DNA of 64,000 nt, from NCBI GenBank assembly GCA_019873685.1, contig JAIOAT010000001.1, positions 193,523-257,522 of the forward strand, in the 5' to 3' direction. Positions 38,041 through 43,273 of this stretch are shown here, piece by piece. Position 1 is the stretch's first letter. Each line of letters begins with the position of its first letter. Made by a program: the position numbers and the translations under genes. The notes beneath the pieces were generated by a model that saw only the letters and a list, made by a program, of their open reading frames with translations, searched no databases and was not told where the DNA came from. Source of the stretch: Chloroflexota bacterium. Its GTDB lineage: Bacteria > Chloroflexota > Anaerolineae > Aggregatilineales > Ch27.

Positions 38041-39417
38041 TTATGACTGACCAAGCCTGGCCTGCCATTGGTTGATCTGTGCAGATACGGTCTCTGGCGC
38101 TGCTCCGCCGACGGGGCGGCGCCGCGCTACCGCCTGATCGAAGTCAAAGACATCATACACATCCGGGCCAAATTGCAGCGCGATGGCCTGGTAGTCGGCC
38201 AGGGGCAGGGCGGAAAGTTTCACCCCAAGTGCTTCAGCGCGGCGGACGACCTGGCCGGTCAGATGATGCGCGTGGCGGAAGGGCACGCCCCTGGCTACGA
38301 GGTAATCGGCCAGGTCTGTGGCCAGCATGGCTTCGTCGAGCGCAGCGCGCATCCGCTCTGGATGCAGGGTCATCGAGGCAATCAGGGCGGTCAGAACAGG
38401 CAGGAGTAACATCAGGGTATCGTAGGCGTCAAAGAGCGGCTCTTTGTCTTCCTGGAGGTCCTTGTTGTAGCCGGAAGGTAGACCCTTGAGCGTGGTCAGC
38501 AGGCCGGCCAGATGGCCAATGATCCGGCCGGTCTTGCCGCGGGCCAGTTCCAGCGGATCGGGATTGCGCTTCTGAGGCATCAAGCTGCTGCCCGTGCTGT
38601 AGCGATCGTCCAGGGTGACAAAGCCAAAGCGCGGGTTGCTGTAGATGATCAGGTCCTCAGCCAGCCGGGAAAGATGGGTCATCAGCAGCGCAGCGGCATG
38701 CAGAAAGTCGGCCACGAAATCGCGATCGGAGACGGCGTCGAGGCTGTTGCTGCTGGCCTGTTGAAAGCCCAGCGCTACAGCCAGAGCGGTACGGTCGATG
38801 GGGTAGGGGGTTCCAGCCAGCGCCCCCGATCCCAGTGGGCACTGGCTGGCGGCGGCAGCTGCCGCCTGTCCCAGCCGATCCCAATCGCGCTCAAGCATGG
38901 CTACGGTGCTCAGCAGCCAGTGTGCTGCCGTGATCGGCTGGGCAGGTTGAAAGTGGGTCAGGCCGGGCATCACGCTGTGGACATGCCCGGCAGCCTGTGC
39001 CAGGAGGGCGCGTTGCAGATCACGGATGTGATCCAGCAGGGCGGGCGTAGCCTGCATGACCCAGAGGCGCAGGTCTGTCGCCACCTGATCGTTGCGGCTG
39101 CGGCCTGTGTGCAGTTTGCCGGCTACAGGACCAATCGCCTCGGTAAGCCAGCGTTCAACGGCGGTGTGGATGTCCTCATCACCGGGGGCGGGTACAAACT
39201 GCCCGGAGGCAAAAAGCCGGCGTACTCGCTCCAGCCCTTGCACGATGGCCTGATGCTCTTCGGAAGTCAGAATTGCTGCCCGGTGAAGCGCTCCGGCCCA
39301 TGCCTGGCTGGCGGTGATGTCAACGTCATAGAGCCGCCAGTCAAAGGGTAAGCTGTCGTTCAGCCGCCTTACCGCGTCATCGGTCGGATGCTGGAATACG
39401 CCGCCCCACAGTGTCAT
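38041..39417 (-). CDS. argH: Argininosuccinate lyase
   Basis: 458 aa, ATG 39417, 27 bases after the argG stop. Fumarase/aspartase superfamily: LWGGVFQHPTDDAVRRLNDSL at the start, DEDIHTAVERWL, HTGRSRNDQVATDLRLWV, THFQPAQPITAAHWLL, and the signature GSSLMPQKRNPDPLELARG. It splits argininosuccinate into arginine and fumarate, the last step of arginine synthesis. The YNKDLQEDKEPLFD stretch is conserved in the family. Co-transcribed with argG under the arg attenuator. Confidence 0.95.
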   Translation of the reverse strand: MTLWGGVFQHPTDDAVRRLNDSLPFDWRLYDVDITASQAWAGALHRAAILTSEEHQAIVQGLERVRRLFASGQFVPAPGDEDIHTAVERWLTEAIGPVAGKLHTGRSRNDQVATDLRLWVMQATPALLDHIRDLQRALLAQAAGHVHSVMPGLTHFQPAQPITAAHWLLSTVAMLERDWDRLGQAAAAAASQCPLGSGALAGTPYPIDRTALAVALGFQQASSNSLDAVSDRDFVADFLHAAALLMTHLSRLAEDLIIYSNPRFGFVTLDDRYSTGSSLMPQKRNPDPLELARGKTGRIIGHLAGLLTTLKGLPSGYNKDLQEDKEPLFDAYDTLMLLLPVLTALIASMTLHPERMRAALDEAMLATDLADYLVARGVPFRHAHHLTGQVVRRAEALGVKLSALPLADYQAIALQFGPDVYDVFDFDQAVARRRPVGGAAPETVSAQINQWQARLGQS

Positions 39418-39444: not shown

Positions 39445-40710
39445 CTAGTCGCGCTTGAACAGGGCATAGTCGGGTTGCGCATATTCGCTTGTCTTCCGGC
39501 CTTCGAGGGCCAGGAGCGCTTCGACTTTGAGCGGCAGCCCGAACAAGTTGATGAACCCTTCCGCATCAGTCTGATCGTAGATGTCCATTTGCCCGAATGA
39601 CGCATAGTCTTCCCGGTACAGGCTGAAGGGACTCTTGCGTCCGGCGATGATCACGTTGCCTTTGTACAGCTTGAGCCGCACTGTGCCGGTGACATTGCGC
39701 TGGGTCACCCGGACAAAGGCGTCCAGCGCTTCCCGGAGCTGGGTGTACCACTGGCCGTTATACACCAGTTCGGCGTACTTCACGGCGATAAAGTCCTTGA
39801 AGTGCATGGTGTACTTGTCGATGCAGATGCTTTCCAGGGCCTGGTGGGCCTTGTAGCAGAGCGTGCCGCCTGGAGTCTCATAGACGCCGCGGCTCTTCAT
39901 GCCGACCAGCCGGTTTTCGACCATATCGACACGGCCAATGCCGTGCTTGCCGCCCAGGGCATTGAGGCGCTCGAACAGTTCGACAGGGGGTAGCTTTTGG
40001 CCATTCAGACTGACAGGAACGCCCTTCTGGAAGCCAATCTCAATATACTCAGGTTCGTCGGGGGCTTCCTGAGGACTGGCTGTCAGCGCGTACATCTCTT
40101 CCTCAGGTTCATTCCAGGGGTCCTCCAGCGGACCGCCTTCGTGGCTCATATGAAAGAGGTTGCGGTCACGACTGTAGATGCTCTTGAGAGTCTGAGTAAT
40201 CGGCACGTTATGCGCCTGGGCATAGGCGATGGCGTCCTCACGGCTGCGGATATGCCATTCTCGCCATGGCGCAATGACTTTGAGCTTGGGATTCAGGGCC
40301 ATCGCGGTCAGTTCAAAGCGCACCTGATCGTTCCCTTTGCCGGTGCAGCCATGCGCGATGGCGTCTGCGCCTTCGACTTCCGCCACTTCCACCAAGCGCC
40401 TGGCGATCAAGGGGCGGGCCATTGAGGTGCCGAGGAGATAATCACGCTCGTAGACTGCACCGGCCTGCATAGTTGGAAAGACAAACTTGAGCAGGAACTC
40501 TTCCCGTAGATCGTCGAGGATGAGTTTGCTGGCGCCGGTCTTGCGGGCCTTTTCCTCCAACCCTTCGAGTTCCTCTCCCTGGCCGATGTTGCTGGTGTAG
40601 CAGATCACCTCGCAGTCATAGTTTTCGATCAGCCAGGGAACGATGATCGAGGTATCCAGACCGCCGCTATAGGCGAGCACGACCTTGTTGACCTTTTGCT
40701 GACCAGCCAT
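39445..40710 (-). CDS. argG: Argininosuccinate synthase
   Basis: 421 aa from ATG 40710, ten bases after AAGGAG; a GTG three codons earlier would overlap that site. The ATP pyrophosphatase loop [18 protein letters not shown] is near the N-terminus, followed by [31 protein letters not shown] and [24 protein letters not shown]. It joins citrulline and aspartate using ATP. The C-terminus is normal. It is the first structural gene behind the arginine-leader attenuator. Upstream arginine genes (argB, C, D, F, J) are not in this window. Confidence 0.96.
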
Positions 40711-40754: not shown

Positions 40755-40793
40755 AAAATGTCCCCAGACCTCTTGTTTTGGTCTGGGGACATT
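40755..40793 (-). terminator. Attenuator terminator before argG
   Basis: Perfect 14-base stem on the minus strand, AATGTCCCCAGACC (40793-40780) / GGTCTGGGGACATT (40770-40757), loop of 9, then TT to give a TTTT run. It ends about 45 bases before argG. The competing antiterminator pairing is TGGTCTGG in the leader (40869-40862) with CCAGACCA (40786-40779). Confidence 0.85.
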
Positions 40794-40838
40794 CAGAGCA
40801 CCTTCAGGAAATTCGGCGTCTGCGGCAGTCCGAGAATT

Positions 40839-40934
40839 TCAGCGCAAGCCAAAATTCTCCGCCAGACCAGTATGCGGTCGGCGGATACGACGGCGCAAAC
40901 GCGAGACGGACGAATCGACCCAGGCGATACTCAT
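40839..40934 (-). CDS. arg operon attenuation leader peptide
   Basis: 31 codons from ATG 40934 to TGA 40839. Codons 11-20 read SRLRRRIRRP, six arginines in eight codons (CGT, CGC, CGT, CGT, CGC, CGA), and the last codon is also Arg. The antiterminator arm lies at codons 22-25 and the terminator follows 46 bases after the stop. A -10 element ends seven bases before the ATG, so the mRNA probably begins at the start codon (leaderless). A three-codon frame MQS overlaps it as ATGA. By analogy with his/ilv leaders, arginine shortage would stall the ribosome and spare argGH from termination. The mechanism is inferred; the composition and pairing are seen. Confidence 0.8.
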   Translation of the reverse strand: MSIAWVDSSVSRLRRRIRRPHTGLAENFGLR

Positions 40935-40940
40935 GATTGC

Positions 40941-40970
40941 ATGATAGCGATACCTCAACACCAACGTCAA
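40941..40970 (-). promoter_or_regulatory. Promoter of the arg leader and argGH
   Basis: Minus-strand TTGACG (40970-40965), 18-base spacer, TATCAT (40946-40941), each five of six consensus bases. The predicted +1 is the A of the leader ATG at 40934, give or take a base or two. Confidence 0.7.
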
Positions 40971-43106: not shown

Positions 43107-43202
43107 ATGTACAAGGCGGGTAACGGTCTGGTTGTCTGCATTGCTGGTGTGAATCACCATCATCACCGTATTCCTAACCGGTCAGACCCCGCTGTCAGGT
43201 AG
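43107..43202 (+). CDS. his attenuation leader peptide
   Basis: 31 codons, ATG 43107 with GGGGGAG five bases upstream, stop TAG 43200. Codons 17-20 are four consecutive histidines (CAC CAT CAT CAC), the hallmark of his leaders. A small hairpin TGGTG/CACCA straddles the first His codon. Codons 27-29 (GACCCCGCT, 43185-43193) can pair, with two G-U pairs, to GGTGGGGTC (43228-43236) in the terminator arm and loop, acting as antiterminator. Terminator follows 20 bases after the stop and hisD 71 bases after it. The reading frame and terminator are seen; the control is by analogy with enterobacterial his attenuation. Confidence 0.92.
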   Translation: MYKAGNGLVVCIAGVNHHHHRIPNRSDPAVR

Positions 43203-43222
43203 GGCTTTGGGCAGGTATTGGG

Positions 43223-43252
43223 AGCGCGGTGGGGTCATCCACCGCGCTTTTT
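43223..43252 (+). terminator. Attenuator terminator before hisD
   Basis: Perfect 10-base stem AGCGCGGTGG (43223-43232) / CCACCGCGCT (43239-43248), loop GGTCAT, then a TTTTT run. It ends 21 bases before hisD. Confidence 0.93.
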
Positions 43253-43273
43253 GTATTGAAAGGTACAAGACAG

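What the first reader, a model, noticed from the sequence alone, without database searches (positions are those of the whole stretch)
40755..40970. Arginine-specific leader-peptide attenuator before argGH
Seen: a promoter, a 31-codon frame with SRLRRRIRRP at its centre, a perfect 14-base terminator before argG, and an 8-base alternative pairing (40869-40862 with 40786-40779) between codons after the Arg cluster and the terminator arm. Known: ribosome-mediated attenuation is classical for his, ilv, leu, trp, thr and phe. Bacterial arginine genes are usually described under ArgR repression, T-boxes or riboswitches; a ribosome-mediated arginine attenuator is, as far as I know, not well documented. 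This may be a new regulatory element.
Basis: partly seen in the sequence, partly recalled or inferred. Interest (0 to 1): 0.88.

Follow-up and report, generated by a model that had tools for sequence, protein, structure and literature searches.

The report
Arginine-codon attenuator controlling arginine genes
In a group of Chloroflexota bacteria that lack the usual arginine repressor, a tiny arginine-rich gene in front of the arginine-making genes appears to act as a fuel gauge: if the ribosome stalls there for want of arginine, transcription continues into the real genes, and if it does not stall, transcription stops early.

Summary
On the minus strand before argGH lie a promoter, the 31-codon ORF MSIAWVDSSVSRLRRRIRRPHTGLAENFGLR, an 8-bp antiterminator pairing and a perfect 14-bp terminator. 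On its own the window pairing is only suggestive (p about 0.03). The comparative evidence is strong. Arg-rich leaders plus terminators recur before argG in many Anaerolineae. ATG-started ORFs with >=5 Arg in 8 codons occur in 34/262 sense regions, against 3 antisense; no other residue does this. The segment after the Arg codons pairs with that genome's own terminator arm and covaries with it. A second leader of the same type precedes argC in the window's own genome and across the order, and reaches another class of the phylum. ArgR was found in none of 151 genomes of the order, but is present in other Chloroflexota. Most likely this is ribosome-mediated transcription attenuation sensing charged tRNA-Arg, standing in for ArgR. 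New features: almost only CGU/CGC codons, and a -10 box 6-10 nt before the leader ATG in 27/29 argG leaders, implying leaderless initiation. I found no description of such an arginine attenuator, but the paper library is open-licence only. Termination, antitermination and arginine response are inferred; no experiment was possible.

The parts
40965..40970 (-). -35 box TTGACG
   Evidence: conserved TTGACA/G in relatives
40941..40946 (-). -10 box TATCAT, 6 nt before the leader ATG, so the predicted transcript starts at or next to the AUG (leaderless)
   Evidence: 27 of 29 leaders have a gap of 6-10 nt
40839..40934 (-). leader peptide ORF, 31 codons, MSIAWVDSSVSRLRRRIRRPHTGLAENFGLR
   Evidence: frame and Arg core conserved in L004, L005 and other lineages
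40878..40901 (-). Arg control codons (RLRRRIRR: CGT, CGC, CGT, CGT, CGC, CGA)
40876..40884 (-). segment 1 CCGCCGACC: can pair with segment 2 (GGTC-T-GGCGG)
   Evidence: folds; similar in L005; not statistically general
40862..40869 (-). segment 2 TGGTCTGG, antiterminator 5' strand, 9-16 nt after the last Arg codon
40832..40859 (-). hairpin GAGAATTTT...AAATTCTC enclosed by the antiterminator; overlaps the leader stop codon
   Evidence: RNA fold
40779..40793 (-). segment 3: terminator 5' arm AATGTCCCCAGACC; CCAGACCA (40786-40779) is the partner of segment 2
40755..40770 (-). segment 4: terminator 3' arm GGTCTGGGGACATT and short T tract
39445..40710 (-). argG, argininosuccinate synthase (probable ATG start at 40710), the regulated gene
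38041..39417 (-). argH, argininosuccinate lyase, presumed co-transcribed

Best explanation
It is a ribosome-mediated transcription attenuator specific for arginine. RNA polymerase starts at or next to the leader AUG and a ribosome begins the leader peptide at the 5' end. With enough Arg-tRNA the ribosome passes the CGU/CGC cluster and occupies or disrupts segment 2 (TGGTCTGG), so segments 3 and 4 form the 14-bp terminator and transcription stops before argG. When charged Arg-tRNA is short the ribosome stalls on the Arg codons, segment 2 stays free and pairs with segment 3, the terminator cannot form, and argGH are transcribed. The same logic works at the separate argC leader of the genome. Together they form an arginine regulon without ArgR. 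Shown from sequence: the ORF, the pairings, their covariation, their position before argG and argC, and the lack of a detectable ArgR in the order. Inferred: stalling, termination, readthrough and the response to arginine.
For: Arg-rich leader plus terminator before argG in about 30 distinct Anaerolineae regions. Arg is the only enriched residue, 34 sense vs 3 antisense. Segment 2 pairs best with its own genome's terminator arm: the own duplex beats every unrelated swapped arm in 15/29 argG leaders and 8/26 argC leaders, median rank p 0.06. Covariation of 2:3 in 17 argG leaders: 89.7% paired, 10 double-change cells, 0/500 shuffles as high, falls to 15-56% when slid; 3:4 96.1% paired. The model R1 from argG leaders also found leaders before argC, including G000:C36, MTLLIAIPVAELRRPRRRPQTDPVWQG with possible 1:2, 2:3 and 3:4 helices and terminator AATCCCCCCAGACCGGGGGGATT. 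ArgR C-domain found in 0/151 order genomes with positive controls, and in the phylum sample all 97 positive genomes lie outside the class. Leader Arg codons are CGU/CGC in 311 of 325 against 145 of 252 in window genes. Folding: with the early Arg codon occupied and RNA made only to segment 3, the antiterminator is in the predicted MFE fold. Candidate His and Ile/Val leaders precede hisD and ilvD in the same window.
Against: No transcript, ribosome or reporter data. The T tract after the window terminator is short. The window's own 2:3 pairing alone is only p about 0.03. A general 1:2 protector hairpin is not supported statistically. Five of 29 argG leaders (L044, L050, L113, L144, L155) fail the swap test. 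Many genomes of the order lack an argG leader (for example those sampled of genus g28), although several of these keep the argC leader. With the complete leader to segment 4, MFE favours the terminator, so antitermination must be kinetic, as in all such attenuators.
Confidence: 0.9

Rival explanations
1. Nascent-peptide arrest: the Arg-rich peptide stalls the ribosome by itself or with free arginine (like the fungal arginine attenuator peptide or enterobacterial SpeFL), rather than through lack of charged tRNA-Arg.
For: Arg is strongly clustered, and poly-basic peptides can slow ribosomes; in close relatives the pattern RRIRRRRT is fixed.
Against: Outside Arg the peptide is not conserved: SRLRRRIRRP, RRIRRRRT, RPRRRYRRR, NRRLRRRTRK, RRPRRRPQT, PRTRRPKPTS; between the two congeneric genomes the Arg core is identical while six residues elsewhere differ. 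CGU/CGC codons are selected, which peptide chemistry does not need. Stalling by excess arginine would raise a biosynthetic gene when arginine is plentiful.
Confidence: 0.05
2. A ligand- or protein-sensing terminator (riboswitch, T-box or RNA-binding protein); the Arg ORF is incidental.
For: A conserved terminator with alternative pairings could serve any sensor.
Against: No Rfam family at the gathering score in the window or in four leader loci, and no meaningful hit at relaxed threshold. The region from the ATG to the terminator is short (about 110-180 nt), and its conserved parts are the Arg codons and switch helices. The Arg ORF recurs before two different arg operons.
Confidence: 0.03
3. 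Chance: an Arg-coding stretch in G+C-rich DNA next to an ordinary terminator of an unrelated short transcript.
For: The 8-bp pairing in the window alone is only p about 0.03.
Against: 34 vs 3 strand asymmetry with no other amino acid, covariation, a second copy at argC in the same genome and fixed promoter-to-ATG spacing.
Confidence: 0.01

Closest known systems
Ribosome-mediated amino-acid attenuators (trp, his, leu, ilv, thr, phe operons; uORFC-8-2 cysS motif, PMC8632094)
   Same: Short leader ORF with a run of codons for the pathway's end product, antiterminator segment just after the control codons, intrinsic terminator, biosynthetic operon downstream.
   Different: Arginine is the sensed amino acid; two independent arg operons per genome; predicted leaderless initiation at argG; a general 1:2 protector helix is not demonstrated.
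Polycysteine leaderless short-ORF attenuators of mycobacteria (Canestrari et al. 2020, cited in PMC9031893)
   Same: Leaderless short ORF with consecutive codons of one amino acid attenuating a downstream operon.
   Different: Arginine instead of cysteine; Chloroflexota; intrinsic terminator with covarying antiterminator.
Salmonella speF orf34 / SpeFL leader (PMC6386406)
   Same: Leader ORF with consecutive Arg codons that responds to arginine.
   Different: speF makes putrescine and the mechanism uses Rho, RNase G and RBS masking; here an intrinsic terminator precedes arginine biosynthesis genes.
ArgR repression of arg operons
   Same: Same regulated genes and end-product logic.
   Different: DNA-binding repressor; not detected in this order, but found in other Chloroflexota.
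Arginine T-box leaders (arginine regulation by T-boxes is mentioned in PMC1262725)
   Same: RNA-level antitermination sensing tRNA-Arg charging.
   Different: T-box RNA binds uncharged tRNA directly; no T-box model hit here, and translation of a leader ORF is used instead.

Membership tests
Ribosome-mediated transcription attenuator | Short translated leader ORF with clustered codons of the end-product amino acid | tested here: met
   ORF 40934-40839 with 6 Arg in 8 codons; conserved, Arg only. Translation itself not testable.
Ribosome-mediated transcription attenuator | Intrinsic terminator between the leader ORF and the structural gene | tested here: met
   14-bp stem 40793-40757; conserved, 96.1% paired with covariation. 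Short T tract in the window.
Ribosome-mediated transcription attenuator | Antiterminator pairing between a segment near the control codons and the terminator 5' arm | tested here: met
   TGGTCTGG/CCAGACCA in the window; own vs swapped arms and covariation.
Ribosome-mediated transcription attenuator | 1:2 protector/pause hairpin | tested here: inconclusive
   Can form in the window's argG leader and the genome's argC leader and some relatives, not significant across the set.
Ribosome-mediated transcription attenuator | Regulated genes belong to the pathway of the sensed amino acid | tested here: met
   argG, argH and argC.
Ribosome-mediated transcription attenuator | Starvation-dependent readthrough | not testable with these tools
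   Needs RNA or reporter experiments.
Leaderless-mRNA attenuator | Transcription start at the leader AUG | tested here: inconclusive
   -10 box 6-10 nt before the ATG in 27/29 leaders, 2/20 for control ATGs; start site not mapped.
ArgR regulon | ArgR protein encoded in the genome | tested here: not met
   PF02863 0/151 in the order including G000; controls positive.
T-box or riboswitch in Rfam | Match to the family covariance model | tested here: not met
   No gathering-level hit in the window or in four leader loci; nothing relevant at E<=1.
Arginine attenuator peptide / SpeFL arrest peptides | Conserved peptide sequence beyond the Arg residues | tested here: not met
   Non-Arg residues vary freely among lineages.

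The most novel reading that the evidence does not exclude
A previously undescribed arginine regulon in which Arg-codon leader peptides, leaderless at argG, control both the argC and argGH operons by intrinsic-terminator attenuation through one tRNA-Arg isoacceptor (the CGU/CGC reader), replacing ArgR in a large part of Chloroflexota.
Probability: 0.65. Interest if true: 0.8.

Novelty: new variant of a known kind. Interest (0 to 1): 0.74.

Why it matters
It adds arginine to the amino acids sensed by translation of a leader peptide with an intrinsic terminator, and explains how a large ArgR-less bacterial group could control arginine synthesis. It also gives a natural series of leaders in which codon choice, leaderless initiation and antiterminator covariation can be studied, with two operons of one genome under the same kind of switch. 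A cultured organism, Thermanaerothrix daxensis GNS-1, carries a version, so the idea is directly testable.

Tried and rejected
Rfam as an explanation: no hits. Pattern search with the Arg core DNA: the 0-mismatch hits are before argG, the weak ones are ordinary GC-rich coding DNA. General 1:2 protector helix: tested, not supported across the set. The phylum-wide search with R2 used strict filters and finds few genomes (12/400), so breadth outside the order is a lower bound. The first argC script used a wrong motif and was replaced. L348 (proS) and L355 were R1 hits without a convincing Arg leader. Arg-rich ORFs of L006-L008 have no matching terminator and were not counted as confident.

Full report
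Observation. argG and argH are confirmed by NCBIfam. Taken alone, the 8-bp antiterminator is about a 3% chance event, and the T tract after the hairpin is short.

Conservation at argG. The window lies in a Chloroflexota genome; relatives with the leader in named records are labelled Anaerolineae, Ardenticatenia and Aggregatilineales, and the NCBI taxonomy places Aggregatilineales in the class Anaerolineae. I collected argG upstream regions from the genus, family, order and class and from GTDB contigs. About 30 distinct regions carry an Arg-rich short ORF followed by a terminator. Across 262 distinct regions, ATG-started ORFs with at least 5 Arg in 8 codons occur in 34 on the sense strand and 3 on the antisense strand, about 1.5 after shuffling, and no other amino acid shows this. 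Many genomes, including most sampled of genus g28, lack both leader and terminator at argG.

Switch helices. The nucleotides after the Arg codons differ between lineages but match that lineage's own terminator arm: TGGTCTGG/CCAGACCA in the window, AGTCCGG/CCGGACT, GGTTCGG/CCGAACC, CCGGGTTCGG/CCGAACCCGG, GGGGTTTTT/AAAAACCCC. Own duplexes beat every unrelated swapped arm in 15 of 29 leaders. In 17 aligned leaders the 2:3 helix is 89.7% paired with ten double-change cells, none of 500 shuffles as good, and it collapses when slid; the terminator is 96.1% paired with eight double-change cells. When the early Arg codon is occupied and RNA is folded only to segment 3, the antiterminator is in the predicted structure. 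A 1:2 protector helix can be drawn in the window (CCGCCGACC with GGTC-T-GGCGG) and in some relatives, but is not significant across the set.

A second leader in the same genome. A covariance model from argG leaders found further copies that are not at argG. Many lie just before argC. The window's own genome has one at contig C36: MTLLIAIPVAELRRPRRRPQTDPVWQG, then CCAGACC-gaccc-GGTCTGG and the terminator AATCCCCCCAGACCGGGGGGATT, so that segments 1 and 3 share the sequence CCAGACC and both can pair with segment 2. Of the sampled argC regions nearly all have such a leader, with segment 2 matching their own terminator (swap test, weaker than at argG), including genomes of g28 that lack the argG leader. 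A model of argC leaders also hit argC in families of the same class (L411, L418) and in a lineage outside the class (L412-L417; MKKQMLTTLFSPALRLRRPRTNEVRWACAVCAA; GAGGTTCGG with CCGAACCTC). Thermanaerothrix daxensis GNS-1, a cultured species, has MFSQTFFTLPRTRRPKPTSAREGGVLLFG before argG.

No ArgR. The ArgR C-terminal domain is found in 0 of 151 genomes of the order (0 of 90 good ones) while the same search rings in 8 control genomes. In a phylum sample 97 of 400 genomes have it, and every one listed is outside the window's class. That attenuation replaced ArgR is an inference from this pattern.

Codons and initiation. Of 325 Arg codons in leader cores 311 are CGU or CGC, against 145 of 252 in eight window genes (Fisher p about 1e-30; leaders are related, so the p-value overstates independence). 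From general knowledge of bacterial decoding both codons are read mainly by one tRNA-Arg (ICG), so a single isoacceptor may be sensed; this was not tested here. In 27 of 29 argG leaders the best promoter has its -10 box 6-10 nt from the ATG, against 2 of 20 for other ATGs, which predicts a leaderless mRNA. The argC leader of the window genome appears to have a 5' UTR instead, so leaderless initiation is not essential to the switch.

Mechanism. Shown: ORF, helices, covariation, gene context and lack of a detectable ArgR. Inferred: ribosome stalling on Arg codons under arginine shortage frees segment 2 to pair with segment 3 and prevents termination; in plenty the ribosome covers segment 2 and the terminator forms. 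Peptide-arrest models are less likely because the non-Arg residues are free to vary and codon choice is selected.

Known or new. Classical attenuators are known for several amino acids. The nearest arginine case found is the Salmonella speF leader, with two Arg codons but Rho, RNase G and RBS masking and a polyamine gene (PMC6386406). A comparative study of Actinobacteria found no RNA structure at arginine operons and credits T-boxes elsewhere (PMC1262725). Leaderless attenuators are known for cysteine in mycobacteria (PMC9031893). Ten literature searches found no arginine biosynthetic attenuator of this kind and none in Chloroflexota, but the library is limited to open licences and one relevant comparative paper (Lopatovskaya et al. 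2010) could not be read.

Noticed in passing
window 43107-43253 (+): Candidate histidine attenuator before hisD: ORF MYKAGNGLVVCIAGVNHHHHRIPNRSDPAVR (43107-43202) with four consecutive His codons, then a GAGCGCGGTGG hairpin and T tract.
   Followed up: partly
window 37894-37714 (-): Candidate branched-chain attenuator before ilvD-ilv[41 protein letters not shown] followed by a terminator AAAGCCCCCCAACCAGCGGGGGGCTTT.
   Followed up: partly
L347 (G009:C27): An Arg leader (MFYKTLISRRSRRNTRIAQVRRG) and terminator precede a gene with weak similarity to an aminopeptidase, possibly a peptide-scavenging gene under the same control.
   Followed up: partly
L348 (G042:C1, 1500-1650): A leader with argG-like segment 2 and terminator but few Arg codons precedes proS (proline--tRNA ligase); what it senses is unclear.
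   Followed up: no
L410 (G215:C1): The argC leader has a TAG stop before the Arg codons where the relative L411 has CAG; perhaps a decayed attenuator or an error.
   Followed up: no
L038 / L116 (G102): argG terminator and segment 2 are kept, but the leader has only scattered Arg codons, possibly a degenerating switch.
   Followed up: no
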